A DNA stretch of 64,000 bases from a virus: positions 1 through 64,000 of the IMG/VR virus record IMGVR_UViG_3300037246_002669; one strand, given 5' to 3'. Below are positions 4,234 to 36,244 of this stretch, in pieces (positions within the stretch are counted from its first letter, which is position 1; each line of letters begins with the position of its first letter). The position numbers were made by a program, and so were the translations under genes. Under the pieces are notes generated by a model. The model had not been told where the DNA came from and did not search any database. It saw only the letters and a list, made by a program, of their open reading frames with translations.

Positions 4234-4252
4234 GCCGTCACCTCCTCGTTGA

Positions 4253-13252: not shown

Positions 13253-14851
13253 TTATTTTCCGCCGTTTTTCCTGCGGAGTTGTCGAACTTTACTATTTGC
13301 GTTCTTTTTGTCCAACACTTCAGGAGTGGACACACTCCGGGCACGAGCTGCACACCATTCCCGGATTGCCCTCACTTCCGTTTCATCCCGGGTGGACTGG
13401 GGAACTACCAGCGAAATGGCTTCCAGAATATGTTCGGATGTAAACTCTACCCCCTCATTGAATGCCTTAAACATAGCATCTTCAATGACACCCTCGATTT
13501 CAGCACCCACAAAACCATCGGTTTTTTTTGCGAGTAAAAGGGTTTTGTAATCGTCCGGATCACGACCTTTTTTACGGATGTGAATGCAGAAGATAACTTC
13601 ACGTTCCCCCTGCTGCGGAAGATCGGTTGCCCATACTTCATCCAATCGACCCCGACGATATAGCATGGATGGCAGGGTTTCCACATCGTTAGCAGTTGCC
13701 ACCAACATTACCGGTGAGGTAGTTTCCTGCCTCCACGTTAAAAGAGTGGTGACAACTCTCGACATGACGCCCCCGTCATTCTCCCCGGAACCATTTCCGC
13801 CCTTTAGACCCTTGTCGATTTCGTCGATCCAGAGGACAACCGGGGAGACTGCTTCGATTACATCCAGAGCCATTCGAATGGCTCTTTCGGACTCACCAAC
13901 AAGACTTTTCATGATCTTGCCCATGTCCATCCGAACCAGCGGAATTTTCAGGTGAGTACTGCAGGCTTTTGCGGTCAGACTCTTCCCGGTGCCGGCAGGG
14001 CCTACGATAAGCATACCCTTGGGATATGGCAGCCCGTACTCCCTTGCCTCATCAGTGAAAACCCGTTCCTTCAATTGCAGGTCAGCTTTAAGGGCATCGA
14101 ACCCGCCCACTGTCTCCATTGACTCGGCAGTGTCAATATATTCCAGCACATCTGATTTCCGAACCGCCTCCGCCTTTGCCATGTGAATGGCCTTAACATC
14201 CACTCCCTCATGCATGGCAATTGTCAGCGCCAAGGCGTTTTCAGCTCCGATCATGGTAAGCCCTACTGCCGCGTTGGCAGCACCAGCGACAAGAGCATCC
14301 ATTTCCTCACTGTCTTCCGGAAGTTCGATATCATCGGAATATGTGTCCAGGAGGGAGGCGAACTCTTCGGCGATTTGATCTTTGGTAGGTAGTTTGCAAC
14401 TGTGGTACGTAATAAGGTGCTGCAGTTCAGGCGGGAGTGTGACATGGGTTCCGATAAGAACGATACTATTTCCGGTGATACGGGCAGCTTCAATGGAGTC
14501 GGCCAACTGCTGGACAATTTGGAAGTTGTCAATAAACTGACGGACGTTATGACACACCAAAATGCAAGAGTGCCCCTCATGCTTTTCAGGATTCCATGCC
14601 TGCACAAATCCCAATGCTTCCAGAAAATCCTCGATGTCTTCGTGACTTTTCATATGTTCGTTGGCATCCCCGGCTAATCCGGATCGCAAACCAGTTGTAC
14701 ACTTCCATACTGCAAGGGTGGAAGATCCAAGGTTAAGTTCCACCATTGCCCGCCGTACTTCAGTTTCGGCAGCATTGGGTTCCTGTGTCTGCATGAGCAC
14801 ACAAGGGTAATTGGCGACAAGGTAATTCTTGATGGTAGGTTGCTCTGCCAT
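13253..14851 (-). CDS. AAA+ ATPase, Ycf46-like
   Basis: A 532-residue protein. Residues 1-240 form an N-terminal domain resembling the cyanobacterial/plastid Ycf46 family (VWKCTTGLR around 49-56, then WNP, ILVCHNVRQFIDN and LPPEL). The ATPase follows: Walker A GPAGTGKS at 284-291, the SLVGESERAIR segment, Walker B VVLWIDEID at 338-346, an ATAND sensor 1 and an RRGRLDE arginine-finger region. This is an FtsH/Cdc48-type AAA module that remodels partner proteins. Two likely partners, DUF1257 and DUF2997 proteins, lie at 28.3-28.9 kb. It has its own promoter (14966-14994). Substrate and purpose are unknown. Confidence 0.85.
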   Translation of the reverse strand: MAEQPTIKNYLVANYPCVLMQTQEPNAAETEVRRAMVELNLGSSTLAVWKCTTGLRSGLAGDANEHMKSHEDIEDFLEALGFVQAWNPEKHEGHSCILVCHNVRQFIDNFQIVQQLADSIEAARITGNSIVLIGTHVTLPPELQHLITYHSCKLPTKDQIAEEFASLLDTYSDDIELPEDSEEMDALVAGAANAAVGLTMIGAENALALTIAMHEGVDVKAIHMAKAEAVRKSDVLEYIDTAESMETVGGFDALKADLQLKERVFTDEAREYGLPYPKGMLIVGPAGTGKSLTAKACSTHLKIPLVRMDMGKIMKSLVGESERAIRMALDVIEAVSPVVLWIDEIDKGLKGGNGSGENDGGVMSRVVTTLLTWRQETTSPVMLVATANDVETLPSMLYRRGRLDEVWATDLPQQGEREVIFCIHIRKKGRDPDDYKTLLLAKKTDGFVGAEIEGVIEDAMFKAFNEGVEFTSEHILEAISLVVPQSTRDETEVRAIREWCAARARSVSTPEVLDKKNANSKVRQLRRKNGGK

Positions 14852-14965
14852 TAATATATACTCCTCAAGTTTAAGGTCAAACAGGCACCGAATTATTTCC
14901 CGACAAACCGTATGCCTATTGAAGGGGGGATGAATCGTATTTCCTGTTTCCCTCCATTCACGTAC

Positions 14966-14994
14966 AAGCTAACACTGGATGTTTTTTGTGTCAA
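14966..14994 (-). promoter_or_regulatory. Sigma70-type promoter
   Basis: On the minus strand TTGACA (14989-14994), a 17-base spacer ending GTGT, and TAGCTT (14966-14971). It drives the Ycf46-like ATPase. A dispersed palindrome lies 16 bases upstream of the -35. Confidence 0.75.
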
Positions 14995-15010
14995 GGAATT
15001 TCCATTAAAA

Positions 15011-15030
15011 ATTTGCAATTTGTTGCAAAT
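15011..15030. promoter_or_regulatory. Dispersed 20-bp palindrome, copy 5
   Basis: ATTTGCAA-TTTG-TTGCAAAT; both half-sites are exact. Intergenic, just upstream of the promoter of the Ycf46-like ATPase. Confidence 0.8.
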
Positions 15031-15060
15031 AGTTGGCAAATCACTGAAACCATACATAAA

Positions 15061-15621
15061 TCAAGAAGAAGGTTTGAAGAGCGCGTGTTGTTTATATATG
15101 GAAACTATAACATTTTTCTCGTAAACAGTGAGTTCCCGTTTCGGGAAGTCAGGATTGACCACATGATATCCCAGGTCCGCGAGAGCCAGCGAGAAAGTTT
15201 GGTCATTGTCAGGAAACTCCACTCCCCACTTCTTATAAACTGCGAGTGGCATTTGATCTTTCTTCATGTTACCTTTGCCACTTGCCCACTTTTTGATTGC
15301 GGAACTTGAGATAGGGAGGGGCGCTTTACCATTCCGTAACCATGCAAAAGTTTTCACTACACCACCCAGTTCAGCGAGGCCGGTGATGCTACTTGTGCCG
15401 CCTTTTCCGACTTTACCGAATGCATAATCTTCAACGAAGACCACATCTTCCGGTTGCGTGTTCTCCAAGAGCGTGTTAGCTATCTCCCGGTATCGAGCGA
15501 GGGATAACGTCTCCGGGGTAGTTTTCACATGTGTTGACCAGCAGTACACCTCATCCGGCCCCACTATGGTCATTCCTGTTCCAGCCAATGACAAATCAAG
15601 CCCTACTGCCCTTCGTACCAT
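15061..15621 (-). CDS. RuvC-like Holliday junction resolvase
   Basis: A 186-residue protein with an RNase H-like fold layout: first strand GLDLSLAGTGM with the catalytic Asp, a second acidic strand VVFVEDYAFG, and a later acidic site near ALADLGYH. The middle segment ITGLAELGGVVK and the block with SSSAIKKWASGKGNMKKDQM match the RuvC/poxvirus-resolvase style. It would cut branched DNA before packaging. It is closely preceded by the Cas4-like nuclease and belongs to the recombination operon. Confidence 0.8.
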   Translation of the reverse strand: MVRRAVGLDLSLAGTGMTIVGPDEVYCWSTHVKTTPETLSLARYREIANTLLENTQPEDVVFVEDYAFGKVGKGGTSSITGLAELGGVVKTFAWLRNGKAPLPISSSAIKKWASGKGNMKKDQMPLAVYKKWGVEFPDNDQTFSLALADLGYHVVNPDFPKRELTVYEKNVIVSIYKQHALFKPSS

Positions 15622-15632
15622 CGTATTCTCCT

Positions 15633-16688
15633 TTATTTACGTTCTTCCCGCCTTCGCACCTCAGCGAGTTTCATGCAGTCTTTCTTCACCGGGCAGGACT
15701 TACTCTGATAGCAGCCAAAATCGGATTTGTCACACTTTGCATTAACAGCAGGCAGTTGATGCGGATAGTTTTCTATGCCTCTACTGTATGAGCGCAACTT
15801 ATCTTGCATCCTCCCCATTAACTTTTCGTTCCTTTCCACCCGGAACATCTTCATGGGCAAAGTTTTAGCCATATACCCTTTCGAGATGTACAATATATAT
15901 CCCACTTCTTCGTCAATTTCAACAGGTAATCGCGACTTGCTGTGATTGCATGAGGACATGTACCCGCTAATTTGCCAAACATGCTCTATATCGGGTGCCT
16001 TCAACTTTGTGAAAAGATCCCCGGACAATGATTTAATCTCAGTAACTCGCAACTTGTTTCCCCAGGAGCGTTTTGCAAGAAACATATCAGGATGGCCGGT
16101 CATAGGGAACTCTCCGTGTGTTTCCAAACTATGTTCTTCGTAAACAAAAGCAGCAGAAAGTGCCCCGCAGTGGTCACACTTCCTTTTAGAGGAGGGAGGA
16201 GGGCCAAAGTACACTACCTTGCTGCACGCTAAACACTTCCACCACCCACGTCTTCTGTCCCCAAATATCGCATCCCCGTTTTGTGCCCAATAATGAAGTG
16301 CATCCCCGATACCGAATGTTATCTTCATTTTGAAGTTTGCGGACTTTTCAAACTCCACTTTATTGTGACTGCCGATGCAGCATTGTCGAATACAGGTTTT
16401 GTACAGTCCTGAAGCGCGGGGTTTTCGGATAAAGAGGGTTTCCACTCTGCCCAGCAGTTTTACATGATCACTGGCAAGAGTGAAAGGATCGTACTCCTTT
16501 TCATAATCATCATTACCAGTGACCCCCATCTGCGGCGGTTTCGGAGTCCCTTGCGACATATCCGGGAACAAATTCTGGGCCGGGAAATCCCCAAGATCTT
16601 CGGACAAATCGTTTTTTACTTGAGTAGATCCTTTTTCCGTAGATGCATTCCGTCGAAGGAGGCTACTTGCCGACTCTGCAAATGTCAT
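15633..16688 (-). CDS. PD-(D/E)XK exonuclease, Cas4/RecB-like
   Basis: A 351-residue protein. The nuclease core is visible as GHPDMFLA (Asp), RVTEIKS (E-x-K) and the QISGYM motif typical of RecB/Cas4 exonucleases. Cysteines near residues 100-110 (CIRQCC) and at the C-terminus (FGC, SCPVKKDC) fit the four-Cys iron-sulfur cluster of Cas4-like enzymes. Two extra CxxC pairs (CLAC, CDHC) in the middle suggest an inserted zinc ribbon. It probably resects DNA ends for recombination with the RecA and resolvase encoded nearby. Confidence 0.8.
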   Translation of the reverse strand: MTFAESASSLLRRNASTEKGSTQVKNDLSEDLGDFPAQNLFPDMSQGTPKPPQMGVTGNDDYEKEYDPFTLASDHVKLLGRVETLFIRKPRASGLYKTCIRQCCIGSHNKVEFEKSANFKMKITFGIGDALHYWAQNGDAIFGDRRRGWWKCLACSKVVYFGPPPSSKRKCDHCGALSAAFVYEEHSLETHGEFPMTGHPDMFLAKRSWGNKLRVTEIKSLSGDLFTKLKAPDIEHVWQISGYMSSCNHSKSRLPVEIDEEVGYILYISKGYMAKTLPMKMFRVERNEKLMGRMQDKLRSYSRGIENYPHQLPAVNAKCDKSDFGCYQSKSCPVKKDCMKLAEVRRREERK

Positions 16689-16707
16689 TTCCTTACATCT
16701 CCTCCAA

Positions 16708-17265
16708 TTAGATTATTTTCTTTAACTCTTTATACAGGGTAATTCCTTCGTCGGTCATCACTTCATCAGTCCCCTGAGTAGGATCAATCCACCTGTATAA
16801 TGACCCAACATTTTTCTCCATCCGGTACCAGTGCTCGGCCAGTTCCCGGTCCTTACTCTTTCTATGCAGATCGTACTGGATGTCATCCACCAAACACAAG
16901 AGGGCTGTAAGATACGAAGCAGACCGGTACTTAACTTCCGTGACCCGTTCCAGTATGAACTGCGCGATTTTCTTTATCTTTGACTGATATCTATCATATT
17001 TTTTCTGGGGCAGTATCGGGTCAACTGCACCTCTGAAGATACGTTTGCGGATATGGATATCTCTGCCACGTATCCCGACGATAATGGTTTTGACAGTAGG
17101 TGGAAGGGTATTTCCTCTGTCATGCCGAGTCACAAGTTCGTAAAGAAATGACTCTATTATATCGGCAGTTAAATACTGTTGTTCGATGGAGCGATTCCAT
17201 GGAGCAACACCTTGACCTTCTTTCATTTCACGTTTTCGCGGTTCCAGTAAATTACTCATTACCAT
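16708..17265 (-). CDS. Hypothetical helical protein
   Basis: A 185-residue charged protein, mostly helical (ITADIIESFLYELV-type segment near the N-terminus; ELAEHWYRMEKNVGSLYRW late). It overlaps the preceding nuclease gene by 14 bases. AAGGAG lies four bases before the first ATG and ten before a second one (17259), so the start is uncertain by two residues. No motif recognised. Its place in the recombination operon suggests a nucleic-acid accessory. Confidence 0.6.
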   Translation of the reverse strand: MVMSNLLEPRKREMKEGQGVAPWNRSIEQQYLTADIIESFLYELVTRHDRGNTLPPTVKTIIVGIRGRDIHIRKRIFRGAVDPILPQKKYDRYQSKIKKIAQFILERVTEVKYRSASYLTALLCLVDDIQYDLHRKSKDRELAEHWYRMEKNVGSLYRWIDPTQGTDEVMTDEGITLYKELKKII

Positions 17266-17740
17266 AAAACTCCTTGTTGAGAGTCCAGGGAATAACCAAT
17301 AATTTCAAATGAGGGAATGTCTGCCGGAAGTGAGCGAGTTTCTTTTTCTGTGACACTCCCCATTTCCCCTTAACTTCCAGAAAAACTCCATAATCGATCA
17401 GGAAGAAATCGGGCAGGTACGACTTTCCGTCAAACTTTATGGTAAACGGTTCAAAGTCAAACTTTATGTTGTTCTTCTGTAGCCATGTAGCCACATGATA
17501 TTCGTACAGTGACCGGAAAAAGCCATGCAGGAACGGCGTATCACCGGAAACCGTATCTTCGTGGGGGTGAGCGGAGCCCTTCGTGCGGTCAAACCATACT
17601 TTTTGCTGCGCGTTCCTTGTCGCCCATTTGATGATGCATTCCTTTGAGCAAACGTAATCTCCCTCATGATCCAGATATTTGAACTGGGAAGCCTCCACCA
17701 TTTGCAATTTATTGCAAAATTGACACAATTTCCTCGGCAT
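17252..17740 (-). CDS. Zinc-finger PD-(D/E)XK endonuclease
   Basis: A 162-residue protein. The N-terminus holds a Cys pair (CQFC) and, 25 residues on, CSKEC, forming a probable zinc finger. The C-terminal half has a compact nuclease motif: YLPDFFLIDYGVFLEVKGKW, giving the P-D and E-x-K catalytic set, like T7 endonuclease I or TnsA-type enzymes. It may act as a structure- or site-specific endonuclease in recombination. A dispersed palindrome overlaps the codons between the two Cys pairs. The start includes the finger and was kept for that reason. Confidence 0.75.
   Translation of the reverse strand: MPRKLCQFCNKLQMVEASQFKYLDHEGDYVCSKECIIKWATRNAQQKVWFDRTKGSAHPHEDTVSGDTPFLHGFFRSLYEYHVATWLQKNNIKFDFEPFTIKFDGKSYLPDFFLIDYGVFLEVKGKWGVSQKKKLAHFRQTFPHLKLLVIPWTLNKEFYGNE
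17700..17719. promoter_or_regulatory. Dispersed 20-bp palindrome, copy 6
   Basis: ATTTGCAA-TTTA-TTGCAAAA, one mismatch. It lies in the first codons of the zinc-finger endonuclease gene. Confidence 0.7.
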
Positions 17741-17774
17741 AACGTCATCTCCTCAAATATACGTATTCCGTATG

Positions 17775-18881
17775 TTACATCCGACTATCCATTTCTTCTT
17801 TGACGGCGTCGATAATAGCCCGTTGCGCAAGCCAGTAGTATTCCGGTTTTGTCTGCCACAACGTTTTGATCTGATCCAGCGTGGCAGCCTGAATGCCCAT
17901 CAACTGCCATTTACTCCCGACTTTCTCCACGATACCGAATTTCTTTGCATGGGTCATTACGGTAGCATAATCATCCACCTGTCCAATATTCAGCCCCAAC
18001 TCAGGGATAGGTTCGGTTGCCCTCACGTACTCTGCCACTCGCCCGAATGTCAGAACTTTTGACTTTCGGATTGCTACTGAATGACGGGTGGCCAGATCTT
18101 TACCCGAAGCAGTCCCAGCTTTGAACTTTTTCTTGTCAGGATCGGTAAGGGATTTTTTAGCACACCGGAATAGCAATGAAAACTCGTGTTTCATACCATG
18201 CCCGCCCGACATCGTTTCAGGATCTCCAAACATCTGGCCAATTTTCATACGTAATTGGTTAGTAAAAATTACAGTCACCGGGTGTCCGTTCTTCCGTTCT
18301 TGTATCATACGCTGTTTCAATTTCCGAACCATACGCCCAATCATTGCGGCCTGTTTTCCTATGAATCCCTGTTCTGCCTCGGAATCCATTTCTCCTGCAG
18401 GTACGAGAGCCGCCAGGGAATCTATCACTACAAGACCGCAGTCATCTGCAGTGATTGTCTGATCTGCAATATTGACGTGCTGTTCTCCGTAATCTGCATA
18501 CCCGATATGAACCCGGTCCATATCCATCCCCACCCGTTCGGCCCAGTCCCTGTCCAGGGTTCCCTCAACTTCCCCCCAGTAGGTATTCATACGCAAAGCA
18601 GATTCAGAACATGAGCAGAATTCAGCATGTTGAAAACATCGCCAGCATAACTTCCCTGCCATTGCCACTGCATTCATAGTCAAAGTGGTCTTCGAGCCGC
18701 CCTCCGGTCCCCAGAAACAACTTGAACCCCACAGTGGCAGTCCTCCTCCAGCTATCATGTCTACAGAAAACACTCCGGTAGGGAGACGTGGCGGATCACG
18801 TTGCAGTTCCTTGCCGGTTCGTATAGTGCCCATCCCGTACTTTTTGTTTTGCATCTCTCGCAGATCCGACATGTTCGCCAT
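17775..18881 (-). CDS. RecA-like recombinase with a Cys-cluster insertion
   Basis: A 368-residue strand-exchange protein. It has a RecA-type start (LPTGVFSVDMIAGGGLP), a P-loop GPEGGSKTT at 58-66, a Walker B-like strand GLVVIDSLAALVPAGEM, and the loop region VTVIFTNQLRMKIGQMFGDPE. Two unusual points: the P-loop reads GGSKT where RecA normally has SSGKT, and just after it C79, C82, C89 and C91 (CWRC...CSC) form a likely zinc site in place of ordinary RecA sequence. It would pair phage DNA for repair or concatemer formation alongside the neighbouring nucleases and SF2 helicase. Confidence 0.88.
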   Translation of the reverse strand: MANMSDLREMQNKKYGMGTIRTGKELQRDPPRLPTGVFSVDMIAGGGLPLWGSSCFWGPEGGSKTTLTMNAVAMAGKLCWRCFQHAEFCSCSESALRMNTYWGEVEGTLDRDWAERVGMDMDRVHIGYADYGEQHVNIADQTITADDCGLVVIDSLAALVPAGEMDSEAEQGFIGKQAAMIGRMVRKLKQRMIQERKNGHPVTVIFTNQLRMKIGQMFGDPETMSGGHGMKHEFSLLFRCAKKSLTDPDKKKFKAGTASGKDLATRHSVAIRKSKVLTFGRVAEYVRATEPIPELGLNIGQVDDYATVMTHAKKFGIVEKVGSKWQLMGIQAATLDQIKTLWQTKPEYYWLAQRAIIDAVKEEMDSRM

Positions 18882-18886
18882 TAGGA

Positions 18887-19180
18887 CTACTCCCTTGTTT
18901 CAGCTTCGTGTTTCTCGAATTCCATTGTTATCAATTTGTCCACCAACTTGTTCAAGGAATCATACGTGGAGCCGACTTCTTCCACGTAACAAGGAAGGGA
19001 AATTGTCACTGATCCCTTCACTGTTCCATAAGGAAATGAAAACCCCTTACTGACAGCAATACGGGCCGGGTCAGTAACGAACGGGCGGATGTTTATCTTT
19101 TCCACAGATCTCTTCAACCTGCCATTTACAGTTGCCGTAACCTCTATCTCACCATCCTCTTTAAATACCTGTCGTGCCAT
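18887..19180 (-). CDS. Hypothetical protein upstream of recA-like gene
   Basis: A 97-residue protein, five bases upstream of the recA-like gene and so surely co-transcribed. It is probably beta-rich in the first two-thirds (VTATVNGRL, VKGSVTISLPCYVEEV) with a helical acidic end. Short phage proteins with an RPF-x-T-x-PA...SLPCY-x-EE pattern are familiar to me, but I know no function. A RecA or ssDNA accessory role is suggested only by position. Confidence 0.6.
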   Translation of the reverse strand: MARQVFKEDGEIEVTATVNGRLKRSVEKINIRPFVTDPARIAVSKGFSFPYGTVKGSVTISLPCYVEEVGSTYDSLNKLVDKLITMEFEKHEAETRE

Positions 19181-19185
19181 TGAAT

Positions 19186-20996: not shown

Positions 20997-21012
20997 GAGA
21001 GTCCTGTCAGAA

Positions 21013-21032
21013 TTGTGCAATTTATTGCAAAA
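21013..21032. promoter_or_regulatory. Dispersed 20-bp palindrome, copy 7
   Basis: TTGTGCAA-TTTA-TTGCAAAA. It lies in the gap between the SSB terminator and the SF2 helicase start. Confidence 0.6.
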
Positions 21033-21073
21033 ATAATAATGCCGGAAAGATCCCGCAAGACCGATCCGGCATT
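21031..21073 (-). terminator. Rho-independent terminator after the SSB gene
   Basis: On the minus strand AATGCCGGA (arm 21065-21073) pairs with TCCGGCATT (arm 21039-21047), followed by ATTATTTTTG. A nine-base-pair perfect stem. Confidence 0.8.
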
Positions 21074-21109
21074 AGACTACCTACTTACAGCGGGAAGATA
21101 AGGGCCGTA

Positions 21110-22888
21110 CTAAATCAGGTCGTCGATACTTGTGACCTTTTCCTTACTCTTCTTCTTTGCCGGTTCTTCATCTCCCGGGTCGTCGCAGCCGTGTTCATCC
21201 TTGAGGCAAGACATGATACTCTTCACGATGGAAGACAGTTTGTCACTGGCCTTGACTTTCACGTCCAGGTCTTTGGATTTGATGAACCTCTTGAGATCGG
21301 TTTTGTTCATGTCCTCCAGGGCTTCCTGAACTGCCTCGAAGTCGACTGCATCGGCATCGCCGCACACGGTCTCGACGATCATGTCAACGATGGCACCGGA
21401 CTTGTCGGTTTTCTTGACTTCCACATCCAGGTCGTTGTCGGCGATGTAGTCCTTCAACTCGCCCTTACTCATTTCCCCCAACTGCTCCCGGAGAGCATCC
21501 GCGTCCACTTCGCCGGAACTGGGGGTCATGACCTCGACGATCATGTCCACGATGGCGCCAGACTTGTCGGTTTTCTTGACTTCCACATCCAGGTCGTTGT
21601 CGGCGATGTAGTCCTTCAACTCGCCCTTGGACATATCTCCCAGTTCCTCCCTGAGGGCTTCCTCGTCAAACTCTCCGCCGGGGTCTTCGGGCATGGCCTC
21701 GATGATGGCCTCGATGATGGCCTTGGGTTTGTCGGTGGCCTTGACTTTCACATCCAGGCCGTTTTCATCGATGAAATCTTTGAGTTCGCCCTTGCTCATC
21801 TCTTCCAGTTTCCCCCGGAGAGCATCCGCGTCCACTTCGCCGGAACTGTCGGAAGGCATGGCCTCCAGGACCAGTTTGATCAGGTCCTCTTTTTTGGTAC
21901 GGGAGGTGAACTTGATGTCCAGGTCATTCTCCTCGATGAAATCTTTGAGTTCCCCCTTGGACATGTCGTCCAGTTTCTCCCGGAGTTCGGAGTTGTCACT
22001 CCCCCCTTCGTCGCCGGGGTCTTCGGGCATGGCCTCGATGATGGCCTCGATGATGGCCTTGGGTTTGTCGGTGGCCTTGACTTTCACATCCAGGCCGTTT
22101 TCATCGATGAAATCTTTGAGTTCGCCCTTGCTCATCTCTTCCAACTGCTCTCTTAACTCGGTCATGTCGTTGTTACTCCTCTTTGATTTGGCATCGCTAC
22201 CGTAAAGTTCCTCAAACGGATCATCACTCTCGGACCCGCCACCAACTGCAGATGGGTAATTTCCTCCCATAGCCGCATTCATATCTTCCGGAGTCTTTGG
22301 CGCAAACATTTTGACATACCCGAAAGGTTTGATCCACTCGTTGGCCTCCGACCGTTTAGCATCGGGAACCAGTTTTTTGAGTTCAGACCGAGAAAGAGTT
22401 CTGATATACTCAAAATCCTCTCCGGTACCGCACTCTGTTTTACTGGCTCCCCTTGACATTTCAAACACACATCCTGTAAGATCTCCGTCTCTTCTTTCGG
22501 ATTTCTTGAGGACCAGTTCCCTTGCTTTTCCTTTCGCCACGAACAACATCTTTGTGACTTTGTGTTGGTTGTCATCCTTGTCAGTCCACTTCCTCAGTTT
22601 CACACAAGTTCCGACTACCACATATGAAGGGGTATCACCGTCTTCGCAAGCCGGGCAGGTATCGCCGTCCTTGATACAGGTAACGTGGTTACCAAACTTT
22701 CCATTCACCTCCAAATTGTGCTCGTAAAAGAAAAACTCGGGATTGTCCAGGAAAACTATCTTGCACGATTCATCATTTTTCAGATAAAACCGCCACGGCA
22801 TCCCTCCCTGTTCTCTACGCAGGCGCTGTTGCGTATCGACTTCCTTGGACTGTTTACGTCCCTCCGCTCCTTTCGCATGCCAGCTCAT
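21110..22888 (-). CDS. ssDNA-binding protein with six C-terminal SAP/HeH-like repeats
   Basis: A 592-residue protein. Residues 1-215 resemble phage gp32-type single-strand-binding proteins, with a Cys set (C71, C78 and C81 in CIKDGDTCPAC) for zinc. At 216-232 comes an acidic, aromatic segment (SESDDPFEELYG) that looks like a typical SSB tail now buried inside the chain. Residues 242-575 then hold six tandem repeats of about 55 residues, each built as LREQLEEMSKGELKDFI..LDVKVK..DK..AIIEAI, resembling SAP or HeH helix-extension-helix domains. The protein ends in SIDDLI, also found in the H1-tailed protein. It likely coats replication-fork DNA and recruits partners. It has its own promoter and terminator. 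Confidence 0.8.
   Translation of the reverse strand: MSWHAKGAEGRKQSKEVDTQQRLRREQGGMPWRFYLKNDESCKIVFLDNPEFFFYEHNLEVNGKFGNHVTCIKDGDTCPACEDGDTPSYVVVGTCVKLRKWTDKDDNQHKVTKMLFVAKGKARELVLKKSERRDGDLTGCVFEMSRGASKTECGTGEDFEYIRTLSRSELKKLVPDAKRSEANEWIKPFGYVKMFAPKTPEDMNAAMGGNYPSAVGGGSESDDPFEELYGSDAKSKRSNNDMTELREQLEEMSKGELKDFIDENGLDVKVKATDKPKAIIEAIIEAMPEDPGDEGGSDNSELREKLDDMSKGELKDFIEENDLDIKFTSRTKKEDLIKLVLEAMPSDSSGEVDADALRGKLEEMSKGELKDFIDENGLDVKVKATDKPKAIIEAIIEAMPEDPGGEFDEEALREELGDMSKGELKDYIADNDLDVEVKKTDKSGAIVDMIVEVMTPSSGEVDADALREQLGEMSKGELKDYIADNDLDVEVKKTDKSGAIVDMIVETVCGDADAVDFEAVQEALEDMNKTDLKRFIKSKDLDVKVKASDKLSSIVKSIMSCLKDEHGCDDPGDEEPAKKKSKEKVTSIDDLI
21200..22165. repeat. Tandem repeats coding the SSB C-terminal domains
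   Basis: Six units of about 160-170 bp on the coding strand. Two pairs are nearly identical at DNA level (the segments around 21400-21480 and 21560-21640; those around 21700-21800 and 22030-22130), indicating recent duplication or gene conversion within the gene. Confidence 0.75.
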
Positions 22889-22930
22889 TGTGTCCTCACT
22901 TTCGTTGATGTTTTTTCAGCCACATACCTA

Positions 22931-22959
22931 TAACTAACACCGATCAAAATTATTGTCAA
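22931..22959 (-). promoter_or_regulatory. Sigma70-type promoter for the SSB gene
   Basis: On the minus strand TTGACA (22954-22959), a 17-base spacer ending CGGTGT, and TAGTTA (22931-22936). The spacer end is shared with the promoters at 30207 and 14966. Confidence 0.75.
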
Positions 22960-22969
22960 ATAACCTTTT

Positions 22970-23992
22970 TTATGATGCATTACGGAGTGCTCTGCGAAAT
23001 TGTTTTTCAGTTTCAATATCACCCGGATCTTCCGGATACTCACCATTAGCGAGGATTCCAGCAGAAGTCCAGTCAATTTTTAAAACCTGAGAAGTTTTTT
23101 CTTTGTACCTCCGAACCCTGGCGCATGCCTTATCACCTGCCTTATCCGCATCGTATCCTGAAAAGATAATATCGGAATTTACTGCTCCTAATTGTGCAGC
23201 AGTAACCGAAGACGTGCAAGAGGCAATTACGTTCATAAATCCGAATCCCACTGTTGACATGGCATCAAACTCTCCCTCCACCGTCATCACTGGCCGGTCC
23301 CAGTCTATTAAATGTAGTCCAAACCATATGCCATTGTTCCGCAACTTAGGGAACTCCATATGGGGGTACCCTGCAAGTTTTGAAGAGATAGTCCAGATAC
23401 TCTTTTTTACTCGTGTTCTTTCCCGTAACAGAAAAATCCTGCCGTGAACGTCAGTCATGGGAAATACAAAAGAACTGTTTTCCGGGTTGCATCTAAGTTT
23501 GAATCGTTTCCATGCAAACTCCGGTATGTTTCGTTCCGCCAAAAATGCACGCAACTTTCTTCCTTCAACTCCCCTGGTAGCCTCCAGCAGGGGATACTGC
23601 TCGTACACAAAAGAGGGAAGTGGTTCTTTAGCGGTGTTTTCCCCAATTTCCCATTCATCTCGCAAAGTGATTCCTTCAGCATCGGAATCATGCACTTCGT
23701 AACTGGCATATATTTTGGCAGCTTCGAAAGGATACGGAGCCCCCAGGACCCACATGGCATGAAGTAAGCGCCCCAAAGGTTTTCCCTCATCAGAACAGCC
23801 GAAACAATAGTACACCGAAGACTCCTTGTCACTGACAGATACTCCAAAACTCGGTCTTGTGTCAGCGCCCCTCCGATGGGCATAAGGACTCATGGGACAC
23901 TTGCAGTTAAGCCAACCGCGCCCGGTGTCCAGAATATCTTGCTCACGAATGCCCAGTGCAATCAAAAACTTTGTGACTCCATATTTATCCAT
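22970..23992 (-). CDS. DnaG-type DNA primase
   Basis: A 340-residue primase that makes RNA primers at the fork. The N-terminus has a zinc-binding domain (CKCPMSPYAH, then YYCFGC), the middle FVFPMTDVHGRI resembles the RNA polymerase domain, and the TOPRIM core shows VEGEFDAM and SGYDADKAGDKA with the acidic metal ligands. It is shorter than cellular DnaG (about 580 residues) and lacks a helicase-binding domain, as is usual for phage primases. The gene is two bases downstream of the DnaB-like helicase. Confidence 0.9.
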   Translation of the reverse strand: MDKYGVTKFLIALGIREQDILDTGRGWLNCKCPMSPYAHRRGADTRPSFGVSVSDKESSVYYCFGCSDEGKPLGRLLHAMWVLGAPYPFEAAKIYASYEVHDSDAEGITLRDEWEIGENTAKEPLPSFVYEQYPLLEATRGVEGRKLRAFLAERNIPEFAWKRFKLRCNPENSSFVFPMTDVHGRIFLLRERTRVKKSIWTISSKLAGYPHMEFPKLRNNGIWFGLHLIDWDRPVMTVEGEFDAMSTVGFGFMNVIASCTSSVTAAQLGAVNSDIIFSGYDADKAGDKACARVRRYKEKTSQVLKIDWTSAGILANGEYPEDPGDIETEKQFRRALRNAS

Positions 23993-23994
23993 GA

Positions 23995-25248
23995 CTACTC
24001 TGCCGCCTCGTCAATGATAACTTCATCCTGTTCGATGACCGTCCGTTCAGTGTCAAACATAATCCGGACTTTGCCTTTTTCACCTTCCCTGCCCTTCAGA
24101 AATTCGAGAATTTTGTAATCTACGGAACTCCAACTTCCAATTGATGCCTCATCCGTGGCAGATTCAGTTTCAATGCCGATTACAATACTTGCCAACTGCC
24201 CTACGGAGTCCGCACCGCCGATATTGGCAAGACTGCCTCCGCCCTTACGGTTGAACTGGTAGGTGGAGATTACTGGAATGTCCAGCGTCAACGCAAGTGA
24301 CTTTAGATATTCAGCAGTATGGGAGATCCTTTCCCATTTACTGCCAAACTTCAGATTGGACATCATAAGGTAAGCGCCATCCACATAAAGGGCATCGGGC
24401 CTCATCTCCTTTGCAAAGTTCCCGACATCCTCCACAGTAGTCATAAGATTACCTTGCAGGATGTAAAACGGGTGCCCATCATTGTGGGCATTTTCCAGTG
24501 ATACAATCCCGTTCCGCAACTTCTGCTCTCCCCAATGGGATAACCGCCCTAATCGGATTTGAGTTACACTAACTTGTTCTAATAAACCGAGTTGCCTTCG
24601 CGCCAACTGTTTCGCACTCATCTCCATGGTTACCACCATTGGAACTTTGTGTTGCTGGTAACCTGCGACAACTGCCTTACTTAATACGTAAGTCTTGCCC
24701 GATCCTGGCCTTCCGCAGATGGCTATGGAGTCACCTCCCTGTGCCCCATCAGTAACTTCGTCCATGTAGGGAATACCAAAAGATATCCCTTTAATCCCCC
24801 CACTCATTTGGCGATCTTTCGTATCCTCAAGAACTCCTTTCCCCAATTCATGCAGAGGGAATAATTGACTGGACGGGTTTATAACTTCAATTTCGGAAAC
24901 TGTGGACTTCAGGACGGAACGGGCTTCCGCCAATTTTCCCTCGTTTAACAACTCTCTCACCGAATTAGTGCCATCAGCAATGAGTCTACTTTCCTGCCTA
25001 ACTCGGAGTCGTGTAATCCAATACTCGATAGGTTCATTTGGATAATCCGGGAATGACAACTCCAAACTACGTTCAACTGTTTCTGGTTGGGGGAGTATCC
25101 CATACTCACCGGCATGTTCGGTGAGAAATTCGAACACTCTTTTTTCCTTATCGCGGAAATTATCAGGCAGGATACTATTGCGACTTAGAAAAGAGATGTG
25201 CCGCCTGTCCACCATTAGTCTGTGCAGCAGTATTAATCCGACTGACAT
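23995..25248 (-). CDS. DnaB-like replicative helicase
   Basis: A 417-residue hexameric helicase. The N-terminal domain (about 1-100) has the DnaB-type helical layout. The RecA-like motor shows Walker A ICGRPGSGKTYVLS, VVTMEMSAKQLARR (motif H1a region), a Walker B-like DALYVDGAYLMM, and the late VISTYQFNRKGGG with a glutamine sensor. It would unwind template DNA with the primase encoded next to it. The operon reads initiator-like, unknown protein, helicase, primase. Confidence 0.9.
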   Translation of the reverse strand: MSVGLILLHRLMVDRRHISFLSRNSILPDNFRDKEKRVFEFLTEHAGEYGILPQPETVERSLELSFPDYPNEPIEYWITRLRVRQESRLIADGTNSVRELLNEGKLAEARSVLKSTVSEIEVINPSSQLFPLHELGKGVLEDTKDRQMSGGIKGISFGIPYMDEVTDGAQGGDSIAICGRPGSGKTYVLSKAVVAGYQQHKVPMVVTMEMSAKQLARRQLGLLEQVSVTQIRLGRLSHWGEQKLRNGIVSLENAHNDGHPFYILQGNLMTTVEDVGNFAKEMRPDALYVDGAYLMMSNLKFGSKWERISHTAEYLKSLALTLDIPVISTYQFNRKGGGSLANIGGADSVGQLASIVIGIETESATDEASIGSWSSVDYKILEFLKGREGEKGKVRIMFDTERTVIEQDEVIIDEAAE

Positions 25249-25250
25249 AT

Positions 25251-26012
25251 TTAGACTCCCGCATCGATTACACGCATACTTCTTTTCTCCATAGTGAAGT
25301 TCATCACAGTTGCCCCCTCTTCGACAAGCCCTGCCACTGGTTCCCCGTAGTTAGACACTATCTCCCCCATGATTTGAGCAACTACTTTCGCACCGAGGGA
25401 ACCACGATACTGTGCAGTGAATACCGTGCGCTTCTGATACGAGGTGCGGAAGTTCAGAAGATTATGGAAGTCGGTCTGCATTTTCGTGCATCCGCCTTTT
25501 TGCACATTGATGTTTTCCCATACCAGCAAACCGGTTGCCCGGTACTCCCCTATAAGATCGCCGACAGGATCGTTCGAGAAATCATCGGAAGGACGACTAC
25601 TCGTGAAAAGGTTCATAAGTTCGGAACTATCTGTGGTAGCCACTGGACTGTTGGTGGTCAGTGAGAACACTACCGGGAGCAAACTGGACACATTTTTAAG
25701 AAAAGTTTGGTTGTTACTCAGCACCAGGAGCCACGGCATTATCTCAGCATCGGAGGGTTCCGTGCCTCCGGTGTTGAAGTTCTGGAAGATAACATCATCT
25801 CTCGAACAGATAACATGTTCGGCGATCTTTGTGACAGCGGAAACGACTTTGTCGTTGGTTTGCAGCCTTTCCAAATTCTTGAGTGGATAACCCAGTCGGT
25901 TAAGGTTACGGAGTATCGCGGTAAGATCGCGTTTGGATCTTGTGTACTCCTCTAATTTCCAGGGAAAGATAAGTTCCTTTGCAGCATTGGGGTTCTTACG
26001 TAAAATCGTCAC
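25251..26012 (-). CDS. Hypothetical protein, possible helicase loader
   Basis: A 253-residue protein between the initiator-like gene (4-bp overlap) and the replicative helicase, where helicase loaders usually lie. The C-terminal half contains GLLVWENI, then LLNFRTSYQKRTVFTAQYRG, reminiscent of the Walker B and sensor 1 strands of DnaC-like AAA proteins. No Walker A P-loop is visible, so if it is an AAA relative it is degenerate. I do not recognise the family; the loader idea rests on position and this weak likeness. Confidence 0.55.
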   Translation of the reverse strand: MTILRKNPNAAKELIFPWKLEEYTRSKRDLTAILRNLNRLGYPLKNLERLQTNDKVVSAVTKIAEHVICSRDDVIFQNFNTGGTEPSDAEIMPWLLVLSNNQTFLKNVSSLLPVVFSLTTNSPVATTDSSELMNLFTSSRPSDDFSNDPVGDLIGEYRATGLLVWENINVQKGGCTKMQTDFHNLLNFRTSYQKRTVFTAQYRGSLGAKVVAQIMGEIVSNYGEPVAGLVEEGATVMNFTMEKRSMRVIDAGV

Positions 26013-27040
26013 TGTTGATGATCCTCCATGTCCATGTAAAAAATCCGATCTTTTTTGCCAGAAGTCGGAAAGTCTTGATCACTGCACCCGTCCTCCTCCG
26101 TGAATTTGCAAGAAATTGCAAAATTATCGTTATTCTCGTTTTCGTCGAGCCATGCCTCTATGTCCATCCGGTAAGTATAGAACAACTCGAAACTAAATGA
26201 CTCGGTAAGCACCGCCGATTTCTGCAGCCGGGCGCAAGCGACGGAATGGTAAAACAAATGCCATTTGTGGATTGCCCTTTCCAGCAGACTCCTTGCCCCG
26301 TCAGTCCCTTTCTCCTTTAGGAAATTCTTGGCCATCCCGTTAACCTTACCGGTCCTGCGTTCCCTGTACGGCAACTCACAATCTTCACAAAAGCCGACGA
26401 TAACCCTAAACATATCCGGAACTGTTAACTCCCGTTTCCCCTGCAACTTATTAATCTTCTTCTTTCGGGAGGCAGCACTCATTGCAAGTGCCTTTCGCAT
26501 TTTGTCTTTAATCGTTTGGGTTGACATAGGTAGCGTGACTCCTTGCTCTTTTATCCCACTATGTTGGTAATGTTCGACAACGAGACTTAGCATAGGTAAA
26601 AAGTCCTTTGCAATAGAAGCCCCTCTCATCTCTGCAGTTTCCGGAGTGCAAAAATGTCGTTCGTACTCAAATAATTCAAGTACTACTTTGGAAATGCCGG
26701 GCAGGTTCACGGTAATTCGAGTTTCCTGATATCGGTTACCTTGACGTTTAATCAGAAGACCCGCCTTTACCATTCGGGAAACTGCCTTCTTCACAGTGTC
26801 AGGTTCATAATATTGAAATCTGGAATCTACTGTCATAATTTGCCCATCGTCCGTAAAGTACTGTCCAGGATCTCCAAATCGCATTCCGGTAGGAACATAA
26901 AATCCGGTACTTCCCCGATAGAGAGATAATCTGACCGCATGCTCCATTACCGCAAGTTCGAGTTGCCCTATCATGTAGGGCAGATAGTCCAACGCAAATC
27001 CGTGCCATAATTTGAACATAATCTCCGATGCGCCCGACAC
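26009..27040 (-). CDS. Replication-initiator-like winged-helix protein
   Basis: A 343-residue protein. The N-terminal 120 residues (LPYMIGQLELAVMEHAVRLSLYRGSTGF... then TVKKAVSRMVKAGLLIKRQG) form a winged-helix domain like that of phage and plasmid replication initiators. The middle has a basic helix, and the C-terminus is acidic with aromatics. Position at the head of the helicase-primase operon and directly beside a gene-free 840-bp repeat region supports an initiator role. Start: GTG at 27040 after GAGGGG; an ATG at 27019 after GGAG is the alternative. A dispersed palindrome lies inside the gene. Confidence 0.65.
   Translation of the reverse strand: MSGASEIMFKLWHGFALDYLPYMIGQLELAVMEHAVRLSLYRGSTGFYVPTGMRFGDPGQYFTDDGQIMTVDSRFQYYEPDTVKKAVSRMVKAGLLIKRQGNRYQETRITVNLPGISKVVLELFEYERHFCTPETAEMRGASIAKDFLPMLSLVVEHYQHSGIKEQGVTLPMSTQTIKDKMRKALAMSAASRKKKINKLQGKRELTVPDMFRVIVGFCEDCELPYRERRTGKVNGMAKNFLKEKGTDGARSLLERAIHKWHLFYHSVACARLQKSAVLTESFSFELFYTYRMDIEAWLDENENNDNFAISCKFTEEDGCSDQDFPTSGKKDRIFYMDMEDHQQ
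26104..26123. promoter_or_regulatory. Dispersed 20-bp palindrome, copy 8
   Basis: ATTTGCAA-GAAA-TTGCAAAA. It lies within the 3' part of the initiator-like gene. Confidence 0.6.
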
Positions 27041-27067
27041 AATCGATACCCCTCACCCTCGTGAAAG

Positions 27068-27096
27068 ATAATCTCACAAGATTTAATTATTATCAA
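27068..27096 (-). promoter_or_regulatory. Sigma70-type promoter for the replication operon
   Basis: On the minus strand TTGATA (27091-27096), a 17-base spacer, and GATTAT (27068-27073). It precedes the initiator-like gene; a palindrome copy lies 25 bases upstream of the -35. Confidence 0.6.
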
Positions 27097-27121
27097 ACAA
27101 GCATTACCCTGAAGTAATTCA

Positions 27122-27141
27122 CATTGCAATAAATTGCAAAT
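27122..27141. promoter_or_regulatory. Dispersed 20-bp palindrome, copy 9
   Basis: CATTGCAA-TAAA-TTGCAAAT. It lies upstream of the promoter of the replication operon. Confidence 0.65.
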
Positions 27142-27398
27142 TTAGAAACAGCCCCGACAGCTAAGATCAAGAAACGCCAGTCATGTAATGGTTATCTCAC
27201 TCCTCCCATTTATTTTCAAATAGCGTTATTGCAGTGCAGATAATCACAAGAGCATGGCAGTAGAAATATTCCTTGCTGCCTGCGTGGAGTGTAACGACTC
27301 GCTCTCTTTTGAACATCATGCTTGCTTATATATTATAATAAATAATACTACACGGAGTGTAGTACTATGTTATAAGAGATGGGTGAGAATGGTGTAAG

Positions 27399-27501
27399 GG
27401 GGCATCCCAGTACCCCTATAGAACGTTTTTGAACTGTTTTTACACCTAAGTTACTGTGATCATTACATCACCTATAGGGGCATCCCAGTACCCCTATAGA
27501 A
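27399..27501. repeat. 25-bp direct repeats and inverted repeat
   Basis: A 25-base sequence beginning GGGGCATCCCAGTACC occurs exactly at 27399-27423 and 27477-27501. The second copy also forms an inverted repeat, CTATAGGGG (27472-27480) against CCCCTATAG (27491-27499). Candidate initiator-binding iterons or regulatory hairpins in the suspected origin. Confidence 0.85.
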
Positions 27502-27547
27502 TTGCCTTTTCCCGTATTTAAGACTAATACCGTTGCCAAATTTCGCC

Positions 27548-27567
27548 ATTTGCAAGTTATTGCACTA
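27548..27567. promoter_or_regulatory. Dispersed 20-bp palindrome, degenerate copy 10
   Basis: Left half ATTTGCAA exact, spacer GTTA, right half TTGCACTA degenerate. Intergenic, in the candidate origin. Confidence 0.4.
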
Positions 27568-27661
27568 CTGCGGTTATAGGAAGTGCGTCTAATTTTGCCT
27601 GTTTGACGATAATCTATTTTCACGATAATATAAAAGTAAACTGCATGATTTTTATTTACAC

Positions 27662-27690
27662 TTGACAACTCTGAAATCAATATGTATATT
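27662..27690 (+). promoter_or_regulatory. Plus-strand sigma70-type promoter
   Basis: TTGACA (27662-27667), a 17-base spacer ending in ATG, and TATATT (27685-27690). It is the best promoter facing rightward in the window, where all genes face leftward. Its transcript would start near 27697 and run antisense into the 27881-28186 gene; no plus-strand coding sequence follows. Confidence 0.5.
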
Positions 27691-27802
27691 ACCTAACAAC
27701 GGCAGCACACTCTGCTTCGTGTACCAAACTGGCAAGTTTTCATCTCCTCACGATCGATAATGGTGCCCCGACCGCCACTATCGGTATGATCAATGCCAGA
27801 AC

Positions 27803-27851
27803 AAAAAAAGGGGTTTTTGGAGATCTCGCCCGGTCCCCATCTACCCCTTTT
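27803..27851 (-). terminator. Terminator-like inverted repeat after 27881 gene
   Basis: On the minus strand AAAAGGGGT...ACCCCTTTT (arms 27843-27851 and 27806-27814), continuing into TTT. The loop is about 28 bases. It ends the leftward series of small genes before the candidate origin. Confidence 0.6.
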
Positions 27852-27880
27852 CCATTGCCTTATTTCCTGCCTGATTCCCT

Positions 27881-28186
27881 TTATGAATAAGCCGCGATCA
27901 TCTTATCCACGTATCCTGGATCGGTCAATCTGGGAACCAGCATCATCACTTCGTACTCGATCGCCTCACTCCTTGCTGAGAATCCATCCCCCCTTTCTTC
28001 CGTGGTGAAGTCTGGAAGTATCTCCCACACCCTCCACAGTGCACTTTTACAGTCAAACCTTACATCGGATGCCCGGACTATTTTCGCGGTCCCCATTTCG
28101 CCCATTTCAGCCGCGATAGGGTTTGCCTCGTCGTACATAAACAGGACCCCACCTTCTGGATTTATAACTATCTCGTAATTCGGCAT
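27881..28186 (-). CDS. Small hypothetical protein
   Basis: A 101-residue protein starting at ATG eight bases after AAGGAGG; a longer frame upstream lacks a ribosome site. It begins MPNYEIVINPEGGVLFMYDE, contains a predicted strand-rich middle (TAKIVRASDVRF), and ends in a helix. The N-terminus resembles the short E-I-x-I-x-P-E-G start of the DUF2997 protein next door, hinting at a related fold. Family not recognised. Confidence 0.65.
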   Translation of the reverse strand: MPNYEIVINPEGGVLFMYDEANPIAAEMGEMGTAKIVRASDVRFDCKSALWRVWEILPDFTTEERGDGFSARSEAIEYEVMMLVPRLTDPGYVDKMIAAYS

Positions 28187-28262
28187 AAGACAATCCTCCT
28201 TACCTTTTAGACGAACTTGCAGTGGTCCAGGCCGATGCAGATAGACCCGGACCGAATTTAGA

Positions 28263-28451
28263 CTACGTGCGGACTGTAGCCTTTGTAGTGCCTTTATGGT
28301 AAAATTCCTGTTTCTTTTTGCACTCACTTACGGAACCCAGCGAGTTTTCCAGTTTTTTGGTGAACTCGGTACACTCCGTCCCTTTCCAGCCGGACTTCAT
28401 ATCGGTTGCCACTTCACCTTCAGGGGAAATGGTGATTTCCATGGTTTTCAT
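28263..28451 (-). CDS. DUF2997-type protein
   Basis: A 62-residue protein: MEITISPEGEV, then WKGTECTEFTKKLENSLGSV and a C-terminal KKQEFY. This matches the layout of the small DUF2997 family (I-x-I-x-P-x-G, then a Cys and a helix ending E-x-ALG). In bacteria such proteins are, to my recollection, encoded next to DUF1257 proteins and Ycf46-like AAA ATPases; here the DUF1257-type gene is immediately upstream and the ATPase is at 13.3-14.9 kb. Function unknown. An AAAGGAG site precedes the ATG. Confidence 0.75.
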   Translation of the reverse strand: MKTMEITISPEGEVATDMKSGWKGTECTEFTKKLENSLGSVSECKKKQEFYHKGTTKATVRT

Positions 28452-28482
28452 GTTTACAACTCCTTTCCCGCAGCGGGGAGGA

Positions 28483-28896
28483 CTACCCGTTAACAGCCAC
28501 CTTCAGTACGATACTTCCATCCGAATTCACCTGCCGTTTGGTTACCATGGCCCCGGCGCGACTCAGGGATTTTTTGACGATGGCTTCCGAATAGTCCCGC
28601 ATAAGGATACCCCCATTTTTCCCTAACCGTCTTGCAAGGGAATTGTAATTGACATCGTTATCCCCAATGTACTGGGAGGCTCCCGCCACTTTGTCGTGTT
28701 TTGCCAGATAAGCAGTCCGACTGCCTCTCCCGGTGGCATCCATGTCCGTCAAGGTAGCGGTGGCCATAACTCCCTGCATGGTAGGTACACGGATCAGGTT
28801 CCCGTGTTCCTGAACTGTGACATTGTGTTTCGCGCATATACGTTTGAACAGCCCCACATCTTTGATCGCTACATCAATTTTCGTGTAATGACTCAT
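28483..28896 (-). CDS. DUF1257 (Ycf35-like) protein
   Basis: A 137-residue protein starting MSHYTKIDVAIKDVGLFKRI, the characteristic start of the DUF1257/Ycf35 family (MSHFTT...). The C-terminal part DYSEAIVKKSLSRAG...NSDGSIVLKV also fits the family end (the Y-A-x-x-x-V...G-x-x-L segment). Ycf35 is conserved in cyanobacteria and plastids without a firmly known role. Its presence with a DUF2997 neighbour and a Ycf46-like ATPase in the same phage suggests a transferred functional module. Confidence 0.78.
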   Translation of the reverse strand: MSHYTKIDVAIKDVGLFKRICAKHNVTVQEHGNLIRVPTMQGVMATATLTDMDATGRGSRTAYLAKHDKVAGASQYIGDNDVNYNSLARRLGKNGGILMRDYSEAIVKKSLSRAGAMVTKRQVNSDGSIVLKVAVNG

Positions 28897-36212: not shown

Positions 36213-36244
36213 CACGCTGTCTCCTCATTAATCAACTGCAGCCA

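What the first reader, a model, noticed from the sequence alone, without database searches (positions are those of the whole stretch)
13253..28896. Phage carries a Ycf46-AAA / DUF1257 (Ycf35) / DUF2997 set
The AAA protein (13253-14851) has a Ycf46-like N-domain, and 28483-28896 and 28263-28451 look like DUF1257 and DUF2997 proteins. As I recall, these three families are neighbours in many bacterial and cyanobacterial genomes with no settled function. A phage holding all three, with the two small ones adjacent and the ATPase 13 kb away under a similar promoter, suggests a conserved functional unit that is useful in infection: protein remodelling, host takeover, or defence/counter-defence.
Basis: partly seen in the sequence, partly recalled or inferred. 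Interest (0 to 1): 0.75.

Follow-up and report, generated by a model that had tools for sequence, protein, structure and literature searches.

The report
Phage-borne AAA–DUF1257–DUF2997 motor module
This phage carries a full set of three proteins (a ring ATPase and two small partners of unknown function) whose genes also sit side by side in many unrelated phages, plasmids, bacteria and an archaeal virus, so it is a widespread, undescribed molecular machine rather than a photosynthesis gene.

Summary
The AAA protein (13253-14851) is a full-length relative of the Ycf46-type AAA proteins of cyanobacteria. 28263-28451 is a clear DUF2997 protein. 28483-28896 misses the Pfam DUF1257 model but is a remote DUF1257 homologue by profiles built without it (E 1e-5, top of 786 window ORFs).

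In other large siphophages (Pseudomonas UF_RH6/SM1, Aeromonas HJ05, Rhizobium I4/L338C, Rhodobacter, Agrobacterium) the order is AAA–X–DUF1257–DUF2997–phrog_38408, just before the replication genes. The window has the same block, with the AAA moved about 13 kb to the far side of its replication block, under a matching promoter. The trio also clusters in plasmids of Bacillota, Actinomycetota, Nitrospirota and cyanobacteria, in small non-photosynthetic-type cyanobacterial genomes, and in an archaeal virus.

New anatomical facts: the AAA N-domain is itself a degenerate AAA tier; DUF2997 has one cysteine conserved in 31/31 sequence clusters; cellular copies often sit beside a radical-SAM 4Fe-4S gene.

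Best reading: a two-tier AAA+ protein-remodelling machine with two dedicated small partners, expressed from an early-type promoter. The target is unknown. A role in infection or defence is untested.

The parts
13253..14851 (-). AAA+ ATPase, 532 aa, Ycf46-type (phrog_8638 full length)
   Evidence: Pfam AAA 1.4e-27, AAA_lid_3 5.6e-8; phrog_8638 3.8e-117; catalytic residues invariant in 9 phage homologues
14132..14851 (-). N-terminal tier (residues 1-240): degenerate AAA domain without Walker A
   Evidence: profile-profile alignment to the family's own ATPase domain, E 9.3e-7 (global) and 1.6e-5 (local); reversed control 0.24
13397..14119 (-). active AAA domain plus lid (residues 245-485)
   Evidence: closest solved structures are Cdc48/p97-type ATPases
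13979..14002 (-). Walker A GPAGTGKS (residues 284-291); Walker B D343/E344, sensor N388 and R399/R402 lie downstream
   Evidence: invariant columns
14966..14994 (-). promoter-like TTGACA-N14-TGTTAGCTT upstream of the AAA gene
   Evidence: exact match to the shared window pattern
28483..28896 (-). DUF1257-like protein, 137 aa (MSH start)
   Evidence: leave-out HMM E 9.7e-6; hhalign 6.7e-6; AF2 model pLDDT 70.6 whose only significant viral structural match is a 147-aa phage protein, E 4.7e-4
28263..28451 (-). DUF2997 protein, 62 aa
   Evidence: PF11211 5.8e-10; leave-out HMM 3.1e-11
28371..28373 (-). codon of Cys27 of the DUF2997 protein, invariant in 31 of 31 sequence clusters
27881..28186 (-). 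phrog_38408-like protein, 101 aa, fourth gene of the phage block (start at the internal ATG with its own Shine-Dalgarno)
   Evidence: leave-out HMM E 0.0023, best of 786 ORFs; hhalign 1.9e-5 over 52 columns; sequence
28932..29426 (-). 164-aa protein in the place of phage protein X; homology NOT shown, positional only
   Evidence: no significant HMM or hhalign match; same position and a basic C-terminal tail
29777..29805 (-). promoter-like TTGACA-N14-TGGTATCTT upstream of the small-gene block
29457..29480 (-). terminator-like hairpin between that promoter and the block

Best explanation
The phage carries one copy of a widespread three-protein module: a two-tier AAA+ ATPase (inactive N-terminal AAA tier, active Cdc48-like C-terminal tier) plus two dedicated small partners, DUF1257 and DUF2997. 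Shown: the module's conservation, the degenerate N-tier, the intact ATPase motifs, the invariant DUF2997 cysteine, and the shared promoter type. Inferred: the AAA forms a hexamer that remodels or unfolds a protein client; the N-tier is the docking platform for the DUF1257-DUF2997 pair; the pair acts as adaptor, with the DUF2997 cysteine as its chemically essential point. In phages the module is made from host-type promoters around the time of genome replication and acts on a phage or host protein. Its place next to the replication genes in all related siphophages makes replication-associated or early host proteins the likeliest clients.
For: Gene order AAA-X-DUF1257-DUF2997-p38408 in UF_RH6, SM1, HJ05, RHph_I4, L338C, IMG/VR L019 and Rhizobium p7, with the RcMenchie and JP1 equivalents. 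Whole-record searches: all three proteins in 8 of 10 viral records with an AAA of this ~530-aa type (ATSV included), and neither small protein in 4 of 4 records with only a short AAA. Trio clustered in plasmids of Paenibacillus, Bacillus, Nitrospirota, Nostoc, Planktothrix and Rhodococcus and in the archaeal virus ATSV (gp08-gp09-gp10; 2.8e-5 and 1.8e-7). Small non-photosynthetic-type cyanobacterial genomes: AAA - divergent DUF1257-like - DUF2997. Cyanobacteria: 62 of 85 DUF2997 genes lie within 2.5 kb of a DUF1257, 61 on the same strand, and 57 of 125 DUF1257 genes within 2.5 kb of such an AAA, all same-strand. AAA, DUF1257 and DUF2997 distance matrices correlate across 20 taxa (r 0.59-0.76, permutation p < 0.001; 17 taxa dereplicated r 0.40-0.62, p <= 0.0012). 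N-tier is a degenerate AAA. Invariant Cys, 31/31 clusters. Promoter pattern 6 against 0.42 expected.
Against: No physical interaction, ATPase activity or client has been shown here. Two full-length AAA carriers (JangDynasty, Javan368) lack both small proteins, and cyanophages P-SSM2 and P-SSM7 carry the small pair without an AAA, so the parts can separate. In the window the AAA gene is 13 kb from its partners, and a terminator-like hairpin precedes the small-gene block. The DUF1257 assignment of the window protein is remote.
Confidence: 0.55

Rival explanations
1. Redox or Fe-S chemistry module: DUF2997 is a small thiol protein whose invariant cysteine carries, receives or is modified by a sulfur, radical or Fe-S chemistry, and the AAA loads or unloads it. 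In cells the electron or radical partner is the neighbouring radical-SAM 4Fe-4S protein or a ferredoxin; a phage would borrow the host's.
For: Invariant Cys in 31/31 clusters of an otherwise fast-evolving small protein. Radical-SAM Fer4_12 protein encoded within the module in Paenibacillus and Rhodococcus, beside the AAA in Treponema, and beside it in two small non-photosynthetic-type cyanobacterial genomes; one also a few kb upstream in B. paralicheniformis. Cyanobacterial cluster duf2997-ycf35-fed7 (PMC4284462).
Against: No Fer4_12 protein in any of the 12 viral records tested or on the Nostoc, Planktothrix, Manganitrophus or Calditerrivibrio plasmids, so it is not part of the core. No chemistry shown.
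Confidence: 0.2
2. Replication or partition accessory of mobile elements: the AAA ring remodels replisome or partition complexes, like loader or unfoldase factors.
For: In all related siphophages the block lies directly before the HTH-DnaB-PolA-primase genes; in the window the small genes also precede helicase and primase genes and the AAA follows RecA, Cas4-like and RuvC genes. Frequent on plasmids.
Against: Cyanobacteria carry these families widely, not only on mobile elements; position in phages may only reflect timing of expression. The plasmid search could by design find only plasmids.
Confidence: 0.15
3. Conflict system: counter-defence, superinfection exclusion or a defence device.
For: Carried by phages and plasmids, and the AAA also by a satellite phage; AAA domain resembles IetA models (PADLOC 9.2e-26).
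Against: IetA similarity covers the AAA domain only and is far under the NCBIfam cut-off (79.7 against 510 bits); DUF1257 and DUF2997 match no PADLOC model; presence in many cyanobacterial genomes points to a housekeeping role.
Confidence: 0.1
4. Unlinked auxiliary genes picked up by chance, or a photosynthesis gene set.
For: Ycf35 is described as suspected of a role in photosynthesis (PMC13131479); cyanophage P-SSM7 has the pair near psbA and a ferredoxin gene.
Against: Same genes clustered in phages of Pseudomonas, Aeromonas and Rhizobium, in plasmids of heterotrophs, in small non-photosynthetic-type cyanobacterial genomes and in an archaeal virus.
Confidence: 0.02

Closest known systems
Cyanobacterial DUF2997-ycf35(DUF1257)-fed7 cluster and Ycf46-type AAA
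   Same: Same three families; cyanobacterial AAAs match at E down to 7e-155 over both tiers; DUF2997 and DUF1257 both present in 79 of 80 fetched loci, DUF2997 just upstream.
   Different: In most cyanobacteria the DUF2997-DUF1257 pair and the AAA (which has its own DUF1257 paralogue beside it) sit at separate loci; the phages add X and phrog_38408 instead of a ferredoxin.
AAA-X-DUF1257-DUF2997-phrog_38408 block of large siphophages (SM1/UF_RH6, HJ05, L338C/RHph_I4)
   Same: Same families next to the replication genes; four of the five window genes match by profile (X by position only).
   Different: Window AAA lies downstream of the replication block; window proteins are highly diverged (AAA about 30% identical, DUF1257 about 20%).
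Cdc48/p97 (two-tier AAA+)
   Same: Best solved-structure match of the active domain; tandem AAA tiers.
   Different: N-tier has no Walker A; no sign of the p97 N-domain; DUF1257 and DUF2997 have no solved relatives.
IetAS defence ATPase IetA
   Same: AAA domain similarity.
   Different: Far below the family cut-off; no match of the N-tier.

Membership tests
DUF2997 (PF11211) | match above the curated Pfam cut-off (24.1 bits) | tested here: met
   39.3 bits, E 5.8e-10
DUF1257 / Ycf35 (PF06868) | match above the curated Pfam cut-off (22.2 bits) | tested here: not met
   no hit for the window protein; so it is called 'DUF1257-like', not a Pfam member
DUF1257 / Ycf35 (PF06868) | homology through intermediates, MSH start, conserved C-terminal Y and G | tested here: met
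   leave-out HMM 9.7e-6; hhalign 6.7e-6; M1 S2 H3 Y102 G115 invariant
Ycf46-type AAA | AAA domain plus lid with intact Walker A/B | tested here: met
Ycf46-type AAA | N-terminal domain shared with cyanobacterial homologues | tested here: met
   profile of phage AAAs matches cyanobacterial AAAs from about position 13 to 536, E down to 7e-155; a plastid Ycf46 itself was not available to test
phrog_38408 | PHROG profile match | tested here: inconclusive
   0.076 to the PHROG; leave-out HMM 0.0023 and hhalign 1.9e-5
phage protein X (before DUF1257) | profile match | tested here: not met
   no significant match; same position only
IetA | NCBIfam NF042959 cut-off 510 bits | tested here: not met
   79.7 bits
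Protein-remodelling AAA+ machine with adaptors | binding of the small proteins to the AAA and ATP-driven remodelling | not testable with these tools
   needs biochemistry

The most novel reading that the evidence does not exclude
The trio is an undescribed class of ATP-driven machine shared by viruses of bacteria and archaea, plasmids and cells, in which a small protein with a catalytic or cofactor-bearing cysteine (DUF2997) is delivered or recycled by a two-tier AAA ring through DUF1257, with radical-SAM or ferredoxin chemistry in cells; phages use the same chemistry on a host or phage target during infection.
Probability: 0.15. Interest if true: 0.88.

Novelty: new variant of a known kind. 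Interest (0 to 1): 0.64.

Why it matters
Three protein families that are common in cyanobacteria and occur in some plastids have no settled function; Ycf35 is usually guessed to serve photosynthesis. Finding the same clustered trio in phages of heterotrophs, in plasmids, in small non-photosynthetic-type cyanobacterial genomes and in an archaeal virus removes that guess as the general function, and points to small, genetically tractable phage systems (HJ05, SM1, L338C) in which the question can be answered by deletion and pull-down.

Tried and rejected
Direct pattern scans of viral contigs with the window's own three proteins found no relatives: too diverged; solved by working through GenBank phages. 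A 10-row and a 5-row DUF1257 alignment were too diverse for pattern scans. AF2 of the AAA without an alignment was useless (pLDDT 37); a mistake that cost one job. Fold search of the DUF1257 model against PDB gave nothing significant. A shared 'I.I.PDG' hairpin in DUF2997, phrog_38408 and the tail of the radical-SAM proteins looked striking by eye but is weak at best (best E 0.001 over 14 columns), so it is not used. ATV p529, a biochemically studied archaeal-virus AAA, was considered as a functional guide: its active ATPase domain is N-terminal (PMC4124505), unlike ours, and no gene of DUF1257 or DUF2997 size follows it on its strand, so it was dropped. The AAA counts used an incomplete AAA list and are replaced. 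Monophyly of the nine AAAs from the trio-bearing siphophages is neither shown nor rejected (p-AU 0.66).
Full report
Identity of the parts. The window is 64 kb of a 94,912-bp virus record. Pfam gives AAA (1.4e-27) and AAA_lid_3 (5.6e-8) for 13253-14851(-) and DUF2997 (5.8e-10) for 28263-28451(-), and nothing for 28483-28896(-). PHROGs gives a full-length match of the AAA to phrog_8638, function unknown. Profiles built from relatives without the window protein recover, among 786 window ORFs, the DUF1257-like protein (E 9.7e-6), DUF2997 (3.1e-11), the AAA (1.8e-127), and a fourth gene, 27881-28186, like phrog_38408 (0.0023), each as top hit. hhalign agrees for DUF1257 (6.7e-6, whole length) and phrog_38408 (1.9e-5), and finds nothing for the 164-aa protein at 28932-29426.

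The same block in other phages. tblastn with the AAA led to large siphophages. Next to their AAA stand, in order, a 200-240 aa protein (X), DUF1257, DUF2997 and (in most) a 113-123 aa phrog_38408 protein: Pseudomonas UF_RH6 and SM1, Aeromonas HJ05, Rhizobium I4 and L338C, IMG/VR L019, a Rhizobium phage-plasmid, and with DUF1257 found by alignment Rhodobacter RcMenchie and Agrobacterium JP1. GenBank itself labels the I4 pair DUF1257 and DUF2997. The block precedes HTH, DnaB, PolA and primase genes. The window keeps the block in that place relative to its DnaB and primase genes but has the AAA beyond RuvC, at the other end of the replication genes; its PolA-like gene lies elsewhere (33528-36215, read by eye). 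So the 13-kb gap is a displacement, not a lack of linkage.

Does the AAA come alone? In whole records, DUF1257 and DUF2997 accompany the AAA in the window phage, L019's phage, UF_RH6, RcMenchie, JP1, HJ05, I4 and (by more sensitive profiles) ATSV. They are absent with JangDynasty and Javan368, whose AAAs are full length, and with DLP_5, RHph_TM16, SIO-2 and Vibrio 1.215.B, whose AAAs are short and lack the N-tier. P-SSM2 and P-SSM7 have the pair and no AAA. The records were chosen through AAA or DUF hits, so these are not unbiased rates.

Outside phages. Plasmids show AAA-DUF1257-DUF2997 in direct succession in Paenibacillus and Nitrospirota, and near succession in Bacillus, Nostoc, Planktothrix and Rhodococcus (profile tests). 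Treponema has DUF2997 on the same plasmid but about 20 kb away. The archaeal virus ATSV has gp08 AAA, gp09 DUF1257-like (2.8e-5) and gp10 DUF2997-like (1.8e-7) in a row. In three small cyanobacterial genomes (1.8-1.9 Mb) that lack a Pfam-level DUF1257, the order is AAA, a protein with a weak DUF1257-like C-terminus (E 0.005-0.06), DUF2997, with a radical-SAM gene directly before the AAA in two of them; that these genomes are non-photosynthetic is inferred from size and content, not tested. Among 117 cyanobacterial genomes, 59 have DUF1257, 58 of these also the AAA; 62 of 85 DUF2997 genes lie within 2.5 kb of a DUF1257.

Anatomy. The AAA's catalytic residues are invariant and its closest solved relatives are Cdc48-type. 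The N-domain aligns in register to the family's own ATPase domain (global E 9.3e-7; reversed control 0.24) yet has no Walker A: a degenerate first tier. DUF2997 has one residue invariant in 31 of 31 clusters, a cysteine in G..G..C...T. DUF1257 keeps an N-terminal MSH (23 of 24 clusters have His3). The AF2 model of the window DUF1257-like protein (pLDDT 70.6) has no PDB match; its one significant viral match is a 147-aa phage protein, the length of the I4 DUF1257 protein, though the accession's identity was not verified. Distances of the three proteins correlate across 20 taxa, which shared descent of the carriers alone could partly explain.

Expression. A TTGACA-N14-TGNTANNTT element occurs upstream of the AAA, of the small-gene block and of neighbouring small genes, far above chance: an extended -10 promoter set read by host polymerase, probably early. 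A terminator-like hairpin (29457-29480) before the block means read-through or another start must be assumed.

Mechanism. Shown: conserved module, two-tier motor, invariant cysteine, common promoter type. Inferred: hexamer, docking of the small pair on the N-tier, protein client. The Fe-S link of cellular copies (radical-SAM; ferredoxin in PMC4284462) suggests redox or radical chemistry as a rival or addition, but no viral record tested has the Fer4_12 protein.

Literature. In 5.39 million open papers, DUF1257 or its Pfam number appears in 3 and DUF2997 in 2, and none holds DUF1257 together with 'phage'. PMC13131479 remarks that DUF2997 is found in several phyla, archaea and some viruses. Subscription papers are not held, so an earlier description cannot be excluded.

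Noticed in passing
window 4629-7814 (-): A 1061-aa protein (by eye a large terminase; not confirmed by Pfam) carries an intein with an HNH-type endonuclease (Intein_splicing 1.4e-7, HNH PHROG 5.7e-8).
   Followed up: partly
window 21110-22888 (-): Putative ssDNA-binding protein with six tandem copies of a ~55-residue SAP/PADR1-like helical repeat (132-nt repeats, two copies identical).
   Followed up: partly
window 22931-22959, 29777-29805, 30207-30235, 30525-30553 (-): A set of near-identical extended -10 promoters (TTGACAATgATTTTnnnCGGTGTTA), some followed by a small ORF and a strong terminator; looks like the phage's early promoter family.
   Followed up: partly
L017 (Acidianus tailed spindle virus) 3350-5580: AAA, DUF1257-like and DUF2997-like genes in a row in an archaeal virus; annotated only as AAA and hypothetical proteins.
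   Followed up: yes
L102 (Treponema succinifaciens pTRESU01) 3348-7572: Radical-SAM protein and Ycf46-type AAA directly upstream of a baseplate assembly protein V gene: possible link to a contractile injection system or prophage.
   Followed up: no
L011, L012, L013, L016: In DLP_5, RHph_TM16, SIO-2 and Vibrio 1.215.B a short AAA (about 400 aa) without the N-tier occupies the same place before the replication genes, without DUF1257 and DUF2997.
   Followed up: partly
L008 7989-8568 and L014 5832-6384 (cyanophages P-SSM2, P-SSM7): DUF2997-DUF1257 pair without an AAA; in P-SSM7 close to psbA, hli genes and a ferredoxin gene.
   Followed up: partly
L141 2-466 and L104 5973-6809: A helix-hairpin-helix protein also accompanies the radical-SAM/AAA module in a small cyanobacterial genome and in a Rhodococcus plasmid.
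   Followed up: no
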